Shown here: piece after piece, positions 3,707-26,097 of the stretch | Numbering within the stretch: position 1 is the stretch's first letter | How the letters are laid out: each line of letters begins with the position of its first letter | Source: a virus | Length of the DNA: 26,702 nt | Virus record (IMG/VR): IMGVR_UViG_3300044954_000186 | Location: 1 to 26,702 of that record | Strand: one strand, 5' to 3' | Program-made: the position numbers and the translations under genes | Notes under the pieces: generated by a model | Told to the model about the DNA's origin: nothing | What the model saw: the letters and a program-made list of their open reading frames with translations, nothing else | Databases searched by the model: none

Positions 3707-6700
3707 ATGGCATCACCAAATATAATAACAGATCTAAAGGATGGATTGAATTCTATAGATTATCTGGAAAAAAAGGAACACGATTTATTTTTCGTTTCTT
3801 CCAGTAGAGAATACTCGTTTGGAAACTCCGAAAAAGATGTGTTGGAGATAGGAATTTATAATCAACAGAAAGAAATAAGTTCGTATTTCACCATAACCGG
3901 CTCAAAGAAAGAAACCGTCGAAACCTATAGATACTTTGACACCGATGGAAATGCTTTTGACGACGTATATTCCCCAAATAAAAACACACCGATACAAGAT
4001 CCAGAAAAGAACGTTCTGTTGTCAATAAAGGATGTAGTGTCGGCGGGTAACGTATCTGCTAACAATTTTTACTTATTGGTAAATCCGATATTCAATTACT
4101 TTTCTAAAGACAAACCTCTCATAGTAAAGGAGATAAGCAACTCCAGAAAAGAAGTAAAGCTGATAAAGTCGTTTAAATCCTACGAGGTTTCTGGAAACCA
4201 TGTCGCCCAATTAATCGATGGAAAGGTAGTAATCGATGGAGACACCACATTAAAATTTGCAGAAGGCATTGTTCACGTCATCAAAGTTATCGGAACGGAT
4301 GTGCGAAACATAAGATTTAGCAAGGCAAATGGAACAGCCAACCAAAGTAAAGCTTCGGAATATCTCGTTAATGTAATTTACAAACCAAAGTCAAACGAGA
4401 TAATTTTGGATGCAACCGAAACCGTGCCAAAGGTTCTTTATGTATATGAGAATAAATCCTCTGGTGAAAGCACTACGATTAAATTTTCTGAAAAGGTAGA
4501 CAGGGAAGATTTTAGGTTAAATACGGAATTTAACTCTTTTGGTAAAAACAAGTTCATTCATAAAGAAATATTTGATGAGATTTCTTACGAAATTTCTTCA
4601 ATAAAATTGGCCGAGACATTCAGTAACACAAAACGGTCATACTCCGATTTAATTTCGACAACAAAAACTCTACTTTCGTTTCAGACTGATAACGACGTAT
4701 TGCAGTTTTTGTCATCGATATATTACGGAAGTTCAGAATACGATTTCTCGTTAGGAAAAACTATAAAACTTCCAGGAGTGGTTGACTACATAAAAAACCA
4801 TTTTAAATTCAACTTTGAATTTTTGGGAGACTTTGTTGACTTAAACCAGAAATTTTCAGAAATTGTGGATTCGGTAGTTCTCGAAAGAATAAAGTTTTAT
4901 AATTCAAACGCCGAAGGAAGGGCAACCTCTGCCTCGCTGAAACTTTCGAGGAATTATGCGCACAGTTTATTGTTTGGTTTATTAAAGTCTTCGGTTTCCA
5001 CCGTAGAATATAATTACAACGAGAAATACAAATCTCCGTTAAAACTTGCCATAAATTTGGGTAAAGGTGACTTTCACCACATATTGTCATTTAAGTTGGA
5101 GAATAAAAACGAACTCTGGGTAAAATTGAAGTCGCCACTTCCACTGTCAGTCACCGTTGGTGGAGGAATTTCTATTTCAAATATATCAATCATTCCTACG
5201 GTGGAGATGGTTTCGTATTCTTCAGAAAAATTGGAAAAGGTTATAAAACTAAAAACCCCAAACTTTTCTCTGAGTCTGAACGAACCGTCTAATAGAACAC
5301 TATCGACCAAATATTATAACGGAGAAGATTTAGAGGTCGCCCGTGAAGAAAAGAATAAGATATCAGTAAATAAAAAATTGATAGATCTAAACACCGACTA
5401 CAGTGATTTTTCAAACTTCGTGGTATTTTCTTCTGCAAATTTAAGAATAAAGATATTCAAAAACAAATATGCTCGACTCACTACATTGAGTGAGGAAATA
5501 GACGAATTGACAGCTATAGATCCGGCAAACTCCGAAGCCAGCGATAGATACTCTGTTTATTCCGACTTAGAGAGAAAAAAGTTAGAATACGACCAAATAA
5601 TCGATGGGTTCGATGGTTATGAATCTTATTTGTATAAATCCGGTCTGTTTGTATACGACACCAATTTGTCTATTTTCGTTGAGGAGTCCGGAAGCAGCAC
5701 GGCGTCTTCGGCAGTCGAAGACTTACTGTTAGAATCCGAAGCATACGACAAAAACAACAGAGACTCTTTGTTGAATAACACCCCTGACTTCATTTACGAG
5801 GATTCAGACAACGATGATTATTTGAAGTTTTTGAGCATGGTTGGACACCACTTTGACAACATATATTTGCATATAACAAATATAGGTATTTACAAGAACG
5901 TGGGTAAAAATATTTCCGATGGATTGACCGGGAAGATTGTTAGCTACGTATTGAACAGTTTAGGATTTAAACTTCCTCCGGGATTGTCTGGATTGATAGA
6001 ATCGGCTGACACGGTTGAAAACTATCTTTCGTCTGATGAAAAGGCCGGCTTACCAAACTCCATCTCAGTTGATGAAAAGACAAAGACTATTTGGAAGAGA
6101 ATGTTAATAAATCTTCCGTCGATTTACAAATCAAAAGGCACGGAAGAATGTATTCGACAGATATTTTCAATCTATGGCATACCTAACAATCTGATTACCC
6201 TCCGAGAGTTCGGTGGTGGATGGACAAACAATGACGTAAGTTCTTCGTATTTTTCAGAAGAGAAAGAATATTTGTTGGAATTTATGGGAGAAGAAGATGA
6301 ATACGTCAGAATCTCAGGTTCATCGTGGCTACCATTTAAATCCATAGATTTTAAGGTTCATATAGATCAGGCACCATATTCTTCTTCAAGAATAATCGTT
6401 CCATTACATGAAAAAATAAATTATGATTCCGCCACAGGTATAACCGCTCAGGCATACTCTTTAGGTTTTGTTAAGACCGGAAAAAGTCTGGGAAGGTTTT
6501 ATTTCTTTATACAAAACACTACTTCCACATTCACCACTCTAACGGAACCGATTTATCTATTTTCCGACGAACCAATGAGTGTGATGTTGAGGAGAAATTA
6601 CATAGACGATAAATTCGATGTAGAACAATCCGCTTCGACCATTCCTATAAAATATGACTTAAAGGTGTACCGAGCATCGGCTGGCGGTAAAAATATCGAC

Positions 6701-8290
6701 ATTCAAACGTCGTTTTACTTAAGCGGTTCTCTCAATGATACATTTGATGCTCAGGGATATTTTGCGTTTGGAAATTCCGGATTGAATGAAATAGAAATTA
6801 TCAGCGAAATCTTAGAAGATATTGAGTCTGAAGATTCTTCGTTTGATTTTATAAAAGAATACTCGGAGGATTTTACGGAGGACGCTTTCTCGGGATATTC
6901 CTTGGCAAAATTCAGGGGATGCCTAGATAGATTTGTAATACAATCAACTCCGCTGAGTGACGAAAACTTCATAATAAGAGGAAAGAACCTAGGGTCATAC
7001 TATCAAGGCGAACCTACGTCCAGTTATGAGGATATACTTTTCAGATTCAATTTGGGAATTCCGTTTGATTTTTCGTCAGCCTCACTTACCGATGCTGGTT
7101 ATGATGTGTCAAATCTTAACCGAAACTTTTCTTCGTCGTTTGCAACCCTATATAACTTCTCAGGAAGCAACGTCACTTCGAGTTTGGGAACAGGAAGTTG
7201 TTTAACTCAGTCTTATTCATACTTCCCACATCAGACCAAAGAATTCATCATCACCAATGAGTTTTATACTGACAAAGTGGGTCCAAGCAGACTTGAGAAT
7301 GGAAAAGTCAATTACTTTCGACAAACCGAATTTGATAACCAACTTTCTCACGAAAAATTTCTTTCAACCAAACCATCCTATAACAAATTTTTGGATTCCA
7401 ACAAAATAGGTGTGTTCGTTTCACCAATACATGAGAGAAACAAAGACATTTTGAATTTTTACGGAAACCACGATATAATAGCGTCTATATCAGAACCTTC
7501 TGATAGATACGGTAAACGATATCTAAAATTGGACGAATTAAGACGACAGTTCTACAGAAAGAACATGACGAACAAGATTCTTTTCAATGAACTGTTCTCT
7601 ATATACAAAATATTCATAGATAAGAGCATATTCGAGACTTTGAAATTGGTGTTGCCGGCTAGAAGCAAAGTTTATTCCGGAATACTGATTGAAGGAACTA
7701 TATTGGAACGAAGTAAGTTGGAACAAAAACCAGTGGATATACTCGAAATAAGAAATTTGAATACGGATATAGATTTGAAAAATTTGGTGGGTCAGGCCGA
7801 AATTATTTCTACAACCACATCAAGTGTGGATATATCCTACATATCTCAAGAGAATTTCTCAGGCAATTCAAATTCTTTTAACGGATTTGGATGTATCTTG
7901 GACAGAGACAATGAATTTAATACAAATGTATTCTTGGACGGAGGTTCTATATACACTCAGTATAATGGAGAAATTTATAGAGTATATAAGAAAAACTCGA
8001 CAAAACAAAAAGATTTCTTTGGTGGAAGACAAACAAGAAAAACGGTCTATTCAATAGAGTTGGTTCCGAGTGGCAGTTCGTTGTATATGGCGTCATATCA
8101 AGAGGTGTCTGACGTACATTTGTTCCGTCAGATAAATAGAAAGCCTCTGCCGTTCAGAAACTCTGTGGGTAAATCCCGTCAGACCGAGTTGACCACAATA
8201 AATATAGACGGCATTGAGGACAGAAGTCCAGTAATTAGGATTAATACCGGACCTAACATCAAAAACACTAATGCCGGATTAAAGGTTTAA
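3707..8290 (+). CDS. Giant baseplate/tail structural protein with lectin-like region
   Basis: At 1527 residues this is the largest gene in the window. The N-terminal ~750 residues are beta- and charge-rich with no motif I can name. Residues ~796-835 (WKRMLINLPSIYKSKGTEEC, then IRQIFSIYGIPNNLITLREFGG) match the 'P.iyksKGT...ll.iyGip' element found in tail protein I-like and large baseplate proteins of environmental myoviruses. Residues ~865-1110 look like a concanavalin/LamG-type sandwich, ending in the usual closing pattern KFRGCLDRFVIQSTPLSDENF. The C-terminal third contains helices (RRQFYRKNMTNKILFNELFSIYKIF) and a beta-rich end. Its position after gp6-like and fibre genes is where T4-like phages place gp7/gp8-type wedge proteins, but I cannot show homology to T4 gp7 (1032 residues). 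Confidence 0.68.
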   Translation: MASPNIITDLKDGLNSIDYLEKKEHDLFFVSSSREYSFGNSEKDVLEIGIYNQQKEISSYFTITGSKKETVETYRYFDTDGNAFDDVYSPNKNTPIQDPEKNVLLSIKDVVSAGNVSANNFYLLVNPIFNYFSKDKPLIVKEISNSRKEVKLIKSFKSYEVSGNHVAQLIDGKVVIDGDTTLKFAEGIVHVIKVIGTDVRNIRFSKANGTANQSKASEYLVNVIYKPKSNEIILDATETVPKVLYVYENKSSGESTTIKFSEKVDREDFRLNTEFNSFGKNKFIHKEIFDEISYEISSIKLAETFSNTKRSYSDLISTTKTLLSFQTDNDVLQFLSSIYYGSSEYDFSLGKTIKLPGVVDYIKNHFKFNFEFLGDFVDLNQKFSEIVDSVVLERIKFYNSNAEGRATSASLKLSRNYAHSLLFGLLKSSVSTVEYNYNEKYKSPLKLAINLGKGDFHHILSFKLENKNELWVKLKSPLPLSVTVGGGISISNISIIPTVEMVSYSSEKLEKVIKLKTPNFSLSLNEPSNRTLSTKYYNGEDLEVAREEKNKISVNKKLIDLNTDYSDFSNFVVFSSANLRIKIFKNKYARLTTLSEEIDELTAIDPANSEASDRYSVYSDLERKKLEYDQIIDGFDGYESYLYKSGLFVYDTNLSIFVEESGSSTASSAVEDLLLESEAYDKNNRDSLLNNTPDFIYEDSDNDDYLKFLSMVGHHFDNIYLHITNIGIYKNVGKNISDGLTGKIVSYVLNSLGFKLPPGLSGLIESADTVENYLSSDEKAGLPNSISVDEKTKTIWKRMLINLPSIYKSKGTEECIRQIFSIYGIPNNLITLREFGGGWTNNDVSSSYFSEEKEYLLEFMGEEDEYVRISGSSWLPFKSIDFKVHIDQAPYSSSRIIVPLHEKINYDSATGITAQAYSLGFVKTGKSLGRFYFFIQNTTSTFTTLTEPIYLFSDEPMSVMLRRNYIDDKFDVEQSASTIPIKYDLKVYRASAGGKNIDIQTSFYLSGSLNDTFDAQGYFAFGNSGLNEIEIISEILEDIESEDSSFDFIKEYSEDFTEDAFSGYSLAKFRGCLDRFVIQSTPLSDENFIIRGKNLGSYYQGEPTSSYEDILFRFNLGIPFDFSSASLTDAGYDVSNLNRNFSSSFATLYNFSGSNVTSSLGTGSCLTQSYSYFPHQTKEFIITNEFYTDKVGPSRLENGKVNYFRQTEFDNQLSHEKFLSTKPSYNKFLDSNKIGVFVSPIHERNKDILNFYGNHDIIASISEPSDRYGKRYLKLDELRRQFYRKNMTNKILFNELFSIYKIFIDKSIFETLKLVLPARSKVYSGILIEGTILERSKLEQKPVDILEIRNLNTDIDLKNLVGQAEIISTTTSSVDISYISQENFSGNSNSFNGFGCILDRDNEFNTNVFLDGGSIYTQYNGEIYRVYKKNSTKQKDFFGGRQTRKTVYSIELVPSGSSLYMASYQEVSDVHLFRQINRKPLPFRNSVGKSRQTELTTINIDGIEDRSPVIRINTGPNIKNTNAGLKV

Positions 8291-18188: not shown

Positions 18189-18209
18189 TCACTCTATTTA
18201 TTGAGTGAT
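18188..18209 (+). promoter_or_regulatory. Hairpin with TATTTATT loop before fibre gene
   Basis: A perfect 7-bp inverted repeat, ATCACTC (18188-18194) and GAGTGAT (18203-18209), encloses the 8-base loop TATTTATT. It begins at the sbcC stop codon and ends two bases before the next ATG at 18212. There is no following T-run, so it is not a standard intrinsic terminator. Its placement suits a translational operator, an RNA-processing site or a promoter-associated element. CTATTTATT also precedes genes at 8335 and 26130. Confidence 0.5.
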
Positions 18210-22684: not shown

Positions 22685-23290
22685 ATGAAGCACGCATCCA
22701 ATAAAAGCAATATAGACATTGTCCGTGGGTATCTCGCCGGAGAAAGACCGTTCGTTCAAGTGGGTTTTGACCCATCCCAAAACGACGTTAATAGAAAAGA
22801 GGGAGAGACCTGGGAAGATGCGTCAGGTAAATGTTGGATAAAGAAGAACGGATATAGAAAAAGAATAAATAAATTAGGGAAAGTTTCTGCCGAATCTGCT
22901 CGTTTATTGTGTTCTATGTGTCAACGAGATATGAAGTGGGGAAATTATTTGGATGATAAAATCTTTCCAAAAACGGGAAGATGTTATGACTGCAATATAG
23001 AGTATGAGTCTAAACTAAAGCTTGAAGGCAAGTATAAGAACTACGAATTGGAAAAAGTTTTTAAGATGCAAAAGGCTAAGGTAGAAGAATTTAGAGCTAA
23101 ATTGGTAGAGACAATACACCACCTTGAGACTTCCACGGATGACATAGTTTATTTTAATGAAGATGGTTCTAAGGATGTCTGGAAAGACACAACACGAGAA
23201 ATGGTTCTGACTGATGCAAAGACAGATTTAACTGAATGTGATTTAGCGTTGGAAAGAATAAACAAGTCATTGGCCGATCTTGCCGTATGA
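22685..23290 (+). CDS. Zinc-ribbon protein upstream of terminase; possible small-subunit role
   Basis: This is a 201-residue protein. Residues 30-65 (GETWEDASGKCWIKKNGYRK) form a small motif I have seen conserved in environmental phages. Four cysteines in two pairs, CSMC (76-79) and CYDC (99-102), form a likely zinc ribbon. Residues ~105-150 and ~170-200 are charged helices (ELEKVFKMQKAKVEEFRAKL, DLALERINKSLADL) suggestive of oligomerisation. The stop overlaps the terminase ATG by ATGA, implying coupled translation. Its place just before the terminase large-subunit gene is where small terminase subunits are often encoded, and a DNA-binding zinc ribbon plus helices would be compatible, but there is no sequence proof. 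It may equally be an unrelated packaging or regulatory protein. Confidence 0.55.
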   Translation: MKHASNKSNIDIVRGYLAGERPFVQVGFDPSQNDVNRKEGETWEDASGKCWIKKNGYRKRINKLGKVSAESARLLCSMCQRDMKWGNYLDDKIFPKTGRCYDCNIEYESKLKLEGKYKNYELEKVFKMQKAKVEEFRAKLVETIHHLETSTDDIVYFNEDGSKDVWKDTTREMVLTDAKTDLTECDLALERINKSLADLAV

Positions 23291-24132
23291 GTGAAAATAA
23301 AATAAATATACGGGACGTAATAAAGGAAGAATATAAACGGTGTTTGGCTGATCCGATATACTTTATGAAAAAGTATGTCAAAATCCAACATCCGTTGAGA
23401 GGGACAATTCCGTTTGACTTATACCCTTTCCAGGAAAAAGCGCTTAAAGGGTTAGTTGATTTCGATTATAATATCATATTGAAATCCAGGCAGATGGGTA
23501 TTACCACACTCACGTCTGCTTATTCTCTGTGGTTGATGGTTTTTCACAGTGATAAAAATATTCTGTGCATAAGCATAAAACAAGAGACTTCAAAAGAAAT
23601 TGTCACTCGGGTAAGATTTGCCAACAATAATTTGCCGTCTTGGTTAAAAATCCCGTGTGTAGAAGATAACCGCTTGTCACTTCGGTTAAAGAACGGCTCC
23701 CAAATAAAAGCAGTTTCATCCTCAGGTGACGCCGGCCGTTCTTCGGCACTCTCCTTGTTGATAATAGACGAGGCCGCATTCATAGATAACATTGAAGAAA
23801 TTTGGCTTTCTGCCCAACAGACACTATCTACCGGAGGTAAAGCCATAATTTTGAGCACACCTAACGGTGTAGGAAACTTCTTTCATAAAACGTGGGTGGC
23901 TTCCGAACAGGGAGAAAATAAATTCAATACCATAAATTTGCCGTGGCATTTACACCCGGAAAGAGACCAGGCTTGGAGAGACAATCAGACCGAACTTCTA
24001 GGTGTAAAGGGTTCTGCTCAAGAATGTGATTGTTTATGGGGAGAGTCATTGGTAAAAATACGAAATAAAATTACAGGAATAGAATCGGAAATATCGATAA
24101 AAGATTTATTCGACAAATTATCTGTCATGTAA
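23287..24132 (+). CDS. terL: Terminase large subunit ATPase half + N-terminal split-intein fragment
   Basis: This is a 281-residue product. Residues 1-248 are the packaging ATPase of a T4 gp17-like terminase: FDLYPFQEKAL (adenine/Q-motif region), a Walker A-type ILKSRQMGITTLTSAY (~64-79), LLIIDEAAFID as Walker B (D161, E162), and IILSTPNGVGNFF as the coupling motif (~187-199). The Walker A lacks the classic GK lysine and instead has K66 upstream, a deviant form known in terminases. At C249 the sequence leaves the terminase pattern (SAQECD, then CLWGESLVKI) and ends after 33 residues; these are the start of an intein. Rejoined to the 24886-26097 product by trans-splicing, it would give a complete 538-residue TerL. 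Alone it lacks the nuclease needed for headful cutting. Confidence 0.9.
   Translation: MSENKINIRDVIKEEYKRCLADPIYFMKKYVKIQHPLRGTIPFDLYPFQEKALKGLVDFDYNIILKSRQMGITTLTSAYSLWLMVFHSDKNILCISIKQETSKEIVTRVRFANNNLPSWLKIPCVEDNRLSLRLKNGSQIKAVSSSGDAGRSSALSLLIIDEAAFIDNIEEIWLSAQQTLSTGGKAIILSTPNGVGNFFHKTWVASEQGENKFNTINLPWHLHPERDQAWRDNQTELLGVKGSAQECDCLWGESLVKIRNKITGIESEISIKDLFDKLSVM
24031..24129 (+). other. Split intein, N-terminal fragment (33 residues)
   Basis: Codons from Cys1 (TGT at 24031) to the stop form a minimal intein start: CLWGESLVKI is block A with the nucleophilic Cys, and ISIKDLFDKL continues the first Hint strands. The TxxH-type block B is absent here and lies in the distal gene. The break after ~33 residues, rather than after ~90-100 at the usual endonuclease site, is the atypical split known from AceL-TerL, which inserts in the same protein. 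Confidence 0.85.
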
Positions 24133-24133
24133 T

Positions 24134-24889
24134 ATGTATTCGCAAGAGTGTGATTGTATGAAAAATAATTATGTAAAAGTTGGATGGGATAAATTAAAGG
24201 AGTTTATTTCTAACGATATATCTATAATGTCTATAGAAAATACAAAATTGTCATTGATGCGTGACGAATATTACAAAAAATTTTTTGGACGATCAAAAAA
24301 CAGAACAATGATGAAAGAAAATCCTGCGTTATACAAGTCTGTGTATGTGCACACGAATTCATTGGAAAATGCATTTAGATCTCAAAAAAGTTATAAAGGA
24401 AATTATAACTTTACCCACAGATTGTTATTTATTGTAGAAAAAAATTGCGACATTGAATCGATTAGATGTAAGTGTGGCAAATCTTATACATGGAATACAT
24501 ATTGTAGGCGGTGCCCGGAATATCATAACACATGGAAAGGAAGAACGCATTCGGTCGATACAAAGAAAAAACAAAGAGTGGGTGCTATAAATTATATAGA
24601 AAATTTACGTGGACAAGTTGTTCCACGATATAACAAATCCTCCATACGAATTATTGAGGAATATGGAAAAAAACACGGATATAATTTCCAACACGCCGAG
24701 AATGGTGGAGAGTTTCATATAAAAGAGTTGGGATATTTTTTGGATGCTTATGATAAAGATAAAAATGTTGTGTTGGAAATAGATGAAGACAGGCACTTCA
24801 GTTGTGGCAAGTTAAAGAACTCAGATGTTGTTCGACAGTCTGAAATCGAAAATGTATTGAAGTGTAAATTTATAAGGATTCGTATATGA
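24134..24889 (+). CDS. Free-standing Vsr-like (EDxHD-type) homing endonuclease
   Basis: This is a 251-residue product if started at ATG 24134. ATG 24158 is an equally plausible start and would drop MYSQECDC, which copies the terminase QECDC sequence. Residues ~112-127 (CKCGKSYTWNTYCRRC) form a small zinc finger. HNTWKGRTHSVDTKKKQR (~131-148) resembles NUMOD3, a DNA-binding motif of homing endonucleases. Residues 169-251 form a Vsr/PD-(D/E)xK-like nuclease: FLDAYDKDKNVVLEIDEDRH (E215, D217, H221), D231, R234 and the closing CKFIRIRI. The gene sits exactly between the two intein halves and its stop overlaps the distal ATG. This matches 'fractured gene' loci where such nucleases separate split-intein genes. 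It is likely the mobile part; activity is not shown. Confidence 0.82.
   Translation: MYSQECDCMKNNYVKVGWDKLKEFISNDISIMSIENTKLSLMRDEYYKKFFGRSKNRTMMKENPALYKSVYVHTNSLENAFRSQKSYKGNYNFTHRLLFIVEKNCDIESIRCKCGKSYTWNTYCRRCPEYHNTWKGRTHSVDTKKKQRVGAINYIENLRGQVVPRYNKSSIRIIEEYGKKHGYNFQHAENGGEFHIKELGYFLDAYDKDKNVVLEIDEDRHFSCGKLKNSDVVRQSEIENVLKCKFIRIRI
24143..24157 (+). repeat. Imperfect copy of the terminase insertion-site sequence
   Basis: CAAGAGTGTGATTGT here matches CAAGAATGTGATTGT at 24019-24033 (14 of 15 bases), encoding QECDC in both places. The first copy is the terminase sequence running into intein Cys1; this one begins the endonuclease ORF. It may be a footprint of an earlier insertion or conversion event at the homing site. 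Confidence 0.6.
24874..24878 (+). promoter_or_regulatory. Shine-Dalgarno AAGGA for distal terL/C-intein gene
   Basis: AAGGA lies 7 bases before ATG 24886, inside the last codons of the endonuclease gene. It supports 24886 as a true, independently initiated start, so the distal intein-terminase chain does not depend only on coupling to the endonuclease stop. Confidence 0.55.
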
Positions 24890-25224
24890 GTCTTGTAAAA
24901 TTGAATACAGAGTATGAAATTTTGACCCCTAATGGATTTCAAAACTTTTATGGAATTCGTAGTTTGGATAAAGAGAGTCATTTATCTATAGAACTATCCA
25001 ATGGAAAGCTTTTAAAGTGTTCTCTTACGCATCCATTTGTAAAAAATGGAAAGGAAATTTTAGCAAATACGTTAAAGGTCGGTTCTATTGTTGATAGTGC
25101 TACACACAACGAAACTGTTTCAATTGTTAATATAGAGGAAATAAAATCGCCTATAAAGCTTTACGATTTGATAAATGTTGATGGAGGAAATGTATTTAAT
25201 GTAGATGGAGTTGTTTCTCATAAC
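24886..25224 (+). other. Split intein, C-terminal fragment (113 residues)
   Basis: This region holds the rest of the Hint fold: ILTPNGFQNFYGI continues block A, KCSLTHPF is block B with H49 (Ser where the usual TxxH Thr stands), LYDLINVDGGNVFNVDG is block F, and VVSHN ends block G with the penultimate His and terminal Asn (AAC 25222-25224). Cys follows at 25225. Having block B in the C-half is diagnostic of the atypical split. No embedded endonuclease domain is present. Confidence 0.87.
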
Positions 25225-26097
25225 TGTGATTTCACAACCACCGGTCAAACGGTTTTGGATGTTGAGACGTTAAAGTGGTTAAAATCTGCGGGCGTTTCCG
25301 ACCCGATTGAGAAACGTTGGTTAGACCAATCGCTTTGGATATGGCATCCGCCGGATTACTCTCGTTCTTATTTGGTTTGTGCCGACGTGGCTCGGGGCGA
25401 CGGCCGCGACAAATCTGCATTTCATGTATTGGATATGAATACTATGGAACAGGTCGCAGAATTTAAGGGGCTTGTGGATACAAAGGGATATGGAAATCTA
25501 CTTGTCAGCATTGCCACGGAATACAACAATGCGATTCTGGTTGTGGAAAACAACAACGTCGGTTGGGCAACACTTCAACAGATAATAGATATTGGTTACC
25601 CGAACACTTTTTATAGTAGTGCAGATTTGCAGTATGTAGATTTGGAACGGCAGATGTCAAACAAATTTAACCGTGCAGAGAAAAACATGGTTCCTGGATT
25701 TACTACAACGACTAGAACCAGACCGCTTATAATTTCAAAACTAGATTCGTATTTTAGAGATAAATCCGTAAAGGTGAATTCCATAAGATTGTATGAAGAG
25801 CTGTCCGTGTTTATATGGAACGGAAGTAAAGCTGAGGCAATGGCCGGTTACAACGACGACCTTGTTACTTCTCTTGGAGTGGGTTTGTGGGTAAGAGACA
25901 CTGCGTTGAGATTAAGAGCCGATGCAGGAGAATATCAAAAAGCCCTTCTCGGAGGAATATCAAAAACTGGCGGCGGCGAGCCTGTGTATAGGCAATCAGT
26001 TGATAGAGGACGTGAGTATTGGACGATGCCTTCTTTGAACGCAGGTGGGTTTAATTCTCCACAAAGAAAAACGGAAGACTTGAAGTGGTTATTATAA
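24886..26097 (+). CDS. terL: C-terminal split-intein fragment + terminase large subunit nuclease half
   Basis: This is a 403-residue product. Residues 1-113 are the distal intein piece (KLNTEYEILTPNGFQNFYGI, LLKCSLTHPF, LYDLINVDGG, VVSHN). From C114 the terminase resumes as CDFTTTGQTVLD, with the RNase H-like nuclease following: YLVCADVARGDGRDKSAF (first metal acid D167), AILVVENNN (E221) and AGYNDDLVTSL (D324/D325). This nuclease cuts concatemeric phage DNA at initiation and at head filling. The first exteinic residue Cys is the nucleophile for ligation to the upstream fragment. The gene has its own Shine-Dalgarno and overlaps the endonuclease stop. The C-terminus (GGGEPVYRQSVDRG) is a flexible tail. 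The portal gene follows after 32 bases. The domain call is firm; trans-splicing is a strong inference. Confidence 0.9.
   Translation: MSLVKLNTEYEILTPNGFQNFYGIRSLDKESHLSIELSNGKLLKCSLTHPFVKNGKEILANTLKVGSIVDSATHNETVSIVNIEEIKSPIKLYDLINVDGGNVFNVDGVVSHNCDFTTTGQTVLDVETLKWLKSAGVSDPIEKRWLDQSLWIWHPPDYSRSYLVCADVARGDGRDKSAFHVLDMNTMEQVAEFKGLVDTKGYGNLLVSIATEYNNAILVVENNNVGWATLQQIIDIGYPNTFYSSADLQYVDLERQMSNKFNRAEKNMVPGFTTTTRTRPLIISKLDSYFRDKSVKVNSIRLYEELSVFIWNGSKAEAMAGYNDDLVTSLGVGLWVRDTALRLRADAGEYQKALLGGISKTGGGEPVYRQSVDRGREYWTMPSLNAGGFNSPQRKTEDLKWLL

What the first reader, a model, noticed from the sequence alone, without database searches (positions are those of the whole stretch)
23287..26097. Atypically split intein in a phage terminase, with only 33 intein residues on the N-half
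The terminase is encoded as two genes. The first ends 33 residues after intein Cys1; the second starts with 113 residues that include block B (SLTHP), block F and the terminal HN before Cys+1. Most natural split inteins break near residue 90-100. A break this early is established for AceL-TerL, an intein in the same gene. This locus is therefore a likely new member of a rare group valued because the N-piece is short enough to synthesise. Precise joining SAQECD+CDFTTTG restores a normal terminase.
Basis: partly seen in the sequence, partly recalled or inferred. Interest (0 to 1): 0.9.

Follow-up and report, generated by a model that had tools for sequence, protein, structure and literature searches.

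The report
Split phage terminase intein with endonuclease
A bacterial virus carries its DNA-packaging motor gene in two pieces that a known type of split, self-joining protein element should stitch back together, and between the pieces sits a DNA-cutting gene whose start carries a short copy of the exact target where the element inserts, probably to control itself.

Summary
TerL-N (23287-24132) ends 33 residues after intein Cys1; TerL-C (24886-26097) starts with 113 intein residues ending HN|C. Joining gives 538 residues that align gaplessly through the invariant AQECDC(D/N)F of intein-free phage TerLs. It is a new member of the atypically split TerL inteins (GOS-TerL, AceL-TerL, Cat). The group is not rare: 51 non-redundant junctions in the loci fetched.

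The locus is therefore a 'fractured gene', and the early break is where the nuclease sits. GIY-YIG and HNH nucleases occupy the same intein position in other phages, and continuous relatives exist (58% identity).

New here: the nuclease leader (24143-24157) carries a 15-nt copy of the terL insertion site. It matches 14/15, and 11-15/15 in half of the endonuclease-bearing relatives. It is mostly untranslated and frame-independent, and sits beside a promoter-like octamer. I infer a homing-site-mimic operator, as described for I-TevI; this is not shown. Trans-splicing, cleavage and repression all need bench tests.

The parts
23287..24030 (+). TerL N-extein (248 aa), ATPase half, ends KGSAQECD
   Evidence: PF03237 Terminase_6N E 3.6e-12; phrog_5989 terminase E 6e-42; joined alignment
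24031..24129 (+). IntN, 33 aa from Cys1 (CLWGESLVKIRNKITGIESEISIKDLFDKLSVM); stop 24130-24132
   Evidence: family alignment A6 with invariant C1, W3, G4, L26; profile match to CatN 6dsl_A E 0.009
24133..24140 (+). promoter-like octamer TATGTATT (variant of TATTTATW, which lies 11-21 nt before five other ORFs in the window)
   Evidence: function not shown
24143..24157 (+). copy of the terL insertion-site sequence CAAGAGTGTGATTGT, 14/15 to the exon copy at 24019-24033; proposed homing-site-mimic operator of the endonuclease gene
24019..24033 (+). exon side of the insertion site CAAGAATGTGAT|TGT (QECD|C)
24134..24889 (+). predicted homing endonuclease ORF, 251 aa from ATG 24134 or more likely 243 aa from ATG 24158; Cys-rich (CxCG..CRxCP) module, NUMOD3-like motif, C-terminal Vsr/EDxHD-type nuclease domain
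   Evidence: homologues at the same place in 33 non-redundant loci; model pLDDT 89.4 with residues 1-9 disordered; nuclease domain like I-Bth0305I 3r3p (Z 6.8) and Vsr 1cw0 (Z 6.7); weak NUMOD3, MTES_1575 and DUF559 matches among homologues
24886..25224 (+). IntC, 113 aa, block B SLTHP, block F/G region ...LYDLINVDGGNVFNVDGVVSHN; start overlaps the endonuclease stop (ATGA)
   Evidence: CatC 6dsl_B E 1.6e-14; alignment A2 with invariant H49, D94, S111, H112, N113
25225..26097 (+). TerL C-extein (290 aa), nuclease half, starts CDFTTTG
   Evidence: phrog_24361 terminase E 2e-13; 47% identity to Mel-JY01 TerL

Best explanation
The terL gene is broken by a naturally split class 1 intein of the atypical TerL type. 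Two precursors, TerL(1-248)-IntN33 and IntC113-TerL(249-538), are made from one operon. They associate into a Hint fold and trans-splice through Cys1, Asn113 and Cys+1 to give a normal 538-residue terminase. The ORF between them is the homing endonuclease that spreads the whole insert: it should cut intein-free terL at the conserved QECD|CDF codons, so that repair copies in IntN, endonuclease and IntC. The break lies about 30 residues into the intein because this is where nuclease genes enter this intein. The leader of the endonuclease gene carries a 15-nt copy of the left side of its own target, next to a promoter-like octamer. The most likely role is an operator: the enzyme binds this half-site without a proper cut and lowers its own expression. 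Shown: gene anatomy, homology, recurrence and statistical reality of the copy. Inferred: splicing, cleavage site, autorepression.
For: Split intein. Same insertion site and IntN length in many loci. Endonuclease. Its place in the intein is also used by GIY-YIG (L108, Vibrio phage VP-1, PF01541 E 9e-7) and HNH_3 (L094, PF13392 E 7e-12), and the same endonuclease is fused in frame to IntN in L171. Related loci lack it, hold remnants, or have a continuous intein. Target copy: of 361 offsets along the joined terL exon, the junction 15-mer matches the leaders best over 29 non-redundant loci (mean 11.17/15 against 8.50, sd 0.47). It is 11/15 or better in 16 of 33 loci with the full endonuclease, 3 of 4 with remnants and 0 of 11 without (Fisher P 0.003). 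It is out of frame with the endonuclease or untranslated in most loci, and an inverted partial copy lies in the leader of another clade. I-TevI has such an operator, 15/20 identical to its homing site and beside its late promoter (PMC2988022).
Against: No splicing, binding or cleavage data. 17 of 33 endonuclease-bearing loci lack a forward copy at this place, and in L004, L038 and L171 the endonuclease starts inside the end of IntN with no such leader. The copies do not significantly follow the exon of their own phage (P 0.085). In the window and L001-L002 the copy is in the endonuclease frame after an ATG and could be translated as MYSQECDC. The P values ignore shared descent.
Confidence: 0.85

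Rival explanations
1. The 15-nt copy is a scar of how the endonuclease gene entered: it was carried in from, or inserted beside, the terL exon target, and has no present function.
For: The copy covers only the left half-site up to TGT and is present mostly with the endonuclease or its remnants; free-standing relatives of the endonuclease sit beside intein-free terL (L012).
Against: It stays recognisable in loci whose endonucleases share only about 50% identity. Changes in untranslated copies concentrate at the positions that are wobble positions in the exon (25 of 30; 8 of 11 distinct changes), which neutral decay would not produce. Inverted partial copies occur in another clade.
Confidence: 0.25
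2. The copy is coding: the endonuclease starts at ATG 24134 and SQECDC is a functional N-terminal peptide.
For: In the window, L001 and L002 an ATG precedes it in frame, and changes there are synonymous.
Against: L003 has ATA instead; other lineages have it out of frame, interrupted by a stop, or without a start. Residues 1-9 of the model have pLDDT under 50.
Confidence: 0.1
3. terL is a broken pseudogene or an assembly chimera, and the intein pieces do not splice.
For: Metagenome contig; no splicing data.
Against: All three ORFs are intact. L001, L002, L003 and L007, from other metagenomes, have the same arrangement at 69-96% identity, and dozens more distant loci keep it. Catalytic residues are conserved.
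Confidence: 0.03

Closest known systems
Atypically split TerL inteins: GOS-TerL, AceL-TerL and engineered Cat (PDB 6dsl)
   Same: Host gene terL, Cys1 (AceL, Cat) and Cys+1, IntN 25-37 aa and IntC 104-115 aa (PMC11766414), sequence match of both halves to Cat
   Different: IntN 33 and IntC 113 aa, sequence distinct from Cat; splicing rate and temperature range unknown
[quoted passage not shown] 2009; paper not held, known from its title and from memory)
   Same: Host gene broken by a split intein with a free endonuclease ORF between the halves
   Different: The copy of the insertion site in the endonuclease leader is, as far as I know, not described; I could not check the paper
I-Bth0305I (EDxHD homing endonuclease, PDB 3r3p)
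   Same: Predicted nuclease fold of residues 168-251 (Z 6.8); E..E..H motif
   Different: Sequence too distant for a sequence match; last residue of the EDxHD motif is F, Y or N here; not intron-encoded
I-TevI autorepression operator in phage T4 (PMC2988022)
   Same: Partial copy of the homing site just upstream of the endonuclease ORF, beside a promoter
   Different: GIY-YIG enzyme in a group I intron, operator proven; here another nuclease family, a split intein, and only sequence evidence

Membership tests
Atypically split TerL inteins (GOS-TerL, AceL-TerL, Cat) | Two ORFs, IntN of about 25-37 aa on the N-extein and IntC of about 104-115 aa on the C-extein | tested here: met
   33 + 113 aa; ranges from PMC11766414
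Atypically split TerL inteins (GOS-TerL, AceL-TerL, Cat) | Sequence relation to characterised members | tested here: met
   IntC to CatC 6dsl_B E 1.6e-14; IntN family profile to CatN 6dsl_A E 0.009, weak because short
Atypically split TerL inteins (GOS-TerL, AceL-TerL, Cat) | Hint fold of the reassembled halves | tested here: inconclusive
   The two-chain complex could not be modelled. The continuous relative L031 (58% to window IntC), with window halves as alignment rows, gives pLDDT 96.4 and matches 6dsl, 6vgv and 6qaz
Atypically split TerL inteins (GOS-TerL, AceL-TerL, Cat) | Catalytic residues: Cys1, block B His, terminal His-Asn, Cys+1 | tested here: met
Atypically split TerL inteins (GOS-TerL, AceL-TerL, Cat) | Trans-splicing activity | not testable with these tools
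   needs co-expression
Fractured gene (split intein plus free endonuclease between halves) | Endonuclease ORF between the two gene halves | tested here: met
   24134-24889; 33 non-redundant loci alike; fold
EDxHD homing endonucleases | Vsr-like PD-(D/E)XK nuclease fold as in I-Bth0305I | tested here: met
   3r3p Z 6.8, rmsd 3.9 over 73 residues; 1cw0 Vsr Z 6.7, rmsd 3.3 over 79. Z below 8, so moderate
EDxHD homing endonucleases | E-D-x-H-D motif | tested here: inconclusive
   window E218-D-R-H221-F; in 28 homologues E and H invariant, second position variable, last F, Y or N
EDxHD homing endonucleases | Site-specific cleavage of the intein-free allele | not testable with these tools
   needs purified enzyme
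Homing-site-mimic operator (I-TevI type) | Leader sequence resembling the homing site, beside a promoter | tested here: inconclusive
   Copy real; homing site and promoter are themselves inferred
Homing-site-mimic operator (I-TevI type) | Binding by the endonuclease and repression | not tested
   bench work

The most novel reading that the evidence does not exclude
Homing endonucleases of fractured terL genes regulate themselves through an untranslated copy of their own intein insertion site in their leader, an I-TevI-like feedback that arose separately in an EDxHD-type, split-intein-borne enzyme. The copy would also mark which part of the target the enzyme reads.
Probability: 0.45. Interest if true: 0.6.

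Novelty: new member of a known kind. Interest (0 to 1): 0.45.

Why it matters
Split inteins with a very short N-piece are sought for protein labelling, because the N-piece can be made by peptide synthesis. This locus and the dozens of relatives found here enlarge the natural set, including continuous, split, nuclease-bearing and nuclease-free forms of one intein at one site. That series makes the origin of split inteins testable and suggests why the split is early: three nuclease families entered at the same loop. The site copy in the nuclease leader is a concrete lead to how such selfish genes hold back their own expression.

Tried and rejected
Close-relative scan with IntC alone in IMG/VR found nothing; the alignment scan did. 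phmmer of the endonuclease against PDB gave only noise, and its profile too. IntN alone found nothing in PDB.

The QEGDYL/QECDYL tails of IntN in the 36-38-aa clade (L090, L095, L112 and others) first looked like further copies of the site. They are in frame with IntN, and a continuous intein without endonuclease has QEPEYL there (L119), so I do not count them as leader copies.

A search for repeats between endonuclease leaders and whole loci, meant to predict targets of relatives at other genes, has no power in this AT-rich DNA (random leaders reach 13-15/15). Tracking of the copy with the exon of the same phage was not significant.

T4 late promoter TATAAATA is not placed before genes here; TATTTATW is. 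The Toxoplasma and Tetrahymena mitoribosome rows and the viral endonuclease rows of the fold search are taken as the shared PD-(D/E)XK core, not as relatives. Dassa 2009 and the I-Bth0305I paper are not held.

Full report
What is there. The window is a fragment (26,702 bases, the whole record) of a T4-like phage of unknown host: baseplate, SbcC/SbcD-like, primase-like, terminase and portal genes are recognisable. terL is in two ORFs. 23287-24132 encodes the ATPase half and ends 33 residues after a Cys (CLWGESLVKIRNKITGIESEISIKDLFDKLSVM). 24886-26097 begins with 113 residues ending VVSHN and continues CDFTTTG. The exteins join to 538 residues that align without a gap at the junction to three intein-free TerLs, inside AQECDC(D/N)F, where every residue but one is the same in all four.

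Between the halves lies a complete ORF, 24134-24889, whose stop overlaps the TerL-C start (ATGA). Homologues lie at the same place in 33 non-redundant loci with an IntN-like CLWG junction. The predicted structure (pLDDT 89.4) has a helical N-terminal part, a Cys-rich module (CxCG...CRxCP), a NUMOD3-like motif and a C-terminal domain like the catalytic domain of I-Bth0305I and like Vsr (Z 6.8 and 6.7). These Z values are moderate; E, E and H of the motif are invariant in 28 homologues. I read it as an EDxHD-type homing endonuclease. The arrangement is the one called a fractured gene (Dassa 2009, title seen; the paper is not held).

Membership. IntC matches CatC of PDB 6dsl at E 1.6e-14; a profile of 26 IntNs matches CatN at E 0.009, behind two repeat-protein matches that are clearly spurious. 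A continuous relative, L031 (58% identity to the window IntC), modelled with the window halves among its alignment rows, gives pLDDT 96.4 and matches 6dsl, VidaL (6vgv) and gp41-1. The lengths 33+113 lie among GOS-TerL 37+115, AceL-TerL 25+104 and Cat-TerL 30+104 (PMC11766414). So it is a new member of a known kind. Activity is untested.

How common, and why the break is early. Two IMG/VR scans returned the same intein at the same site in many contigs. After removing near-identical ones, 51 junctions remain: 33 split with the endonuclease, 4 with remnants of it, 8 split without it, 3 continuous, 2 with IntN fused to a nuclease, 1 cut by the contig end. In Vibrio phage VP-1 (L108) IntN runs into a GIY-YIG domain; in L094 an HNH_3 domain precedes IntC; in L171 the EDxHD-type endonuclease is fused to IntN. 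Thus nucleases of three families sit about 30 residues into this intein. The simple reading is that the atypical split site is the place where nuclease genes entered, as the usual split near residue 100 is the usual nuclease position (the latter from general knowledge). The direction of change, continuous to split or back, was not resolved here.

A copy of the insertion site in the endonuclease leader. 24143-24157 (CAAGAGTGTGATTGT) repeats the exon sequence 24019-24033 (CAAGAATGTGAT|TGT) at 14 of 15 positions. These are the only two 15/15 matches to the motif CAAGARTGTGAWTGT in the window. Sliding every 15-mer of the joined exon over the leaders of 29 non-redundant loci, the junction 15-mer is the best of 361 offsets (11.17 against a mean of 8.50, sd 0.47). 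The copy reaches 11/15 or more in 16 of 33 loci with the endonuclease, 3 of 4 with remnants, and 0 of 11 without.

In the window and L001-L002 it is in the endonuclease frame behind an ATG. In L003 that ATG is ATA; in L033, L040, L044, L058 and L060 the copy is out of frame; in L083 a stop follows. The first nine residues of the window ORF are disordered in the model, so the true start is probably ATG 24158 and the copy is leader DNA.

Among 16 untranslated copies, 25 of 30 changes fall on positions that are third codon positions in the exon (8 of 11 distinct changes, P 0.009; descent not corrected). An enzyme that reads the exon but tolerates its wobble positions would leave this pattern. In a second clade a partial copy lies inverted in the leader.

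Just upstream is TATGTATT (24133-24140). Its relative TATTTATW occurs six times on the + strand of the window, five of them 11-21 nt before an ORF (P 1e-7), so it is promoter-like. T4 I-TevI has just this arrangement: an operator 15/20 identical to its homing site, beside its late promoter, bound but hardly cut (PMC2988022). I therefore propose a homing-site-mimic operator, at about 0.45. Against it: half of the endonuclease-bearing loci lack a forward copy, the copies do not significantly follow their own exon (P 0.085), and there is no binding or expression data. A scar of insertion is the main rival.

Verdict. Observation confirmed; interpretation supported but incomplete. The intein is a new member of a known group that is larger than assumed. 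The extra interest lies in the nuclease at the split point and in the leader copy of its target.

Noticed in passing
L031 4908-5336 (and L115, L119, L087, L107): Continuous inteins at or near the same TerL site, related to the split family (L031 IntC 58% identical to the window); useful as natural fusion forms.
   Followed up: partly
L108 2238-3038 (Vibrio phage VP-1): IntN of the TerL intein fused in frame to a GIY-YIG nuclease domain; IntC in a separate ORF. The deposited record calls the pieces terminase large subunit and terminase like family protein.
   Followed up: partly
L012 3085-5396: Intein-free terL with a relative of the window endonuclease directly downstream; a 15/15 repeat AAAAAGAGGATTTGA links the end of terL to a site 86 nt past the insertion point (AT-rich, may be chance).
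   Followed up: partly
L012 5406-9719: Portal protein ORF of 1437 aa that appears to hold two inteins.
   Followed up: no
window 8319, 10100, 13134, 18195, 26109 (+): Octamer TATTTATW 11-21 nt upstream of ORF starts, 5 of 6 plus-strand copies; at 18195 it is the loop of a CACTC...GAGTG inverted repeat. Possible late promoter or leader element of this phage.
   Followed up: partly
L090, L112, L125, L126, L182 (about +87 to +130 from intein Cys1): Inverted repeat CAAGAAGGYGAC-TATTTATNATAAAG-GTCGCATTCTTG around the end of IntN and the endonuclease leader, with the 3' arm resembling the insertion site on the other strand.
   Followed up: partly
window 3707-8290: 1527-aa ORF without any Pfam or PHROG match.
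   Followed up: no
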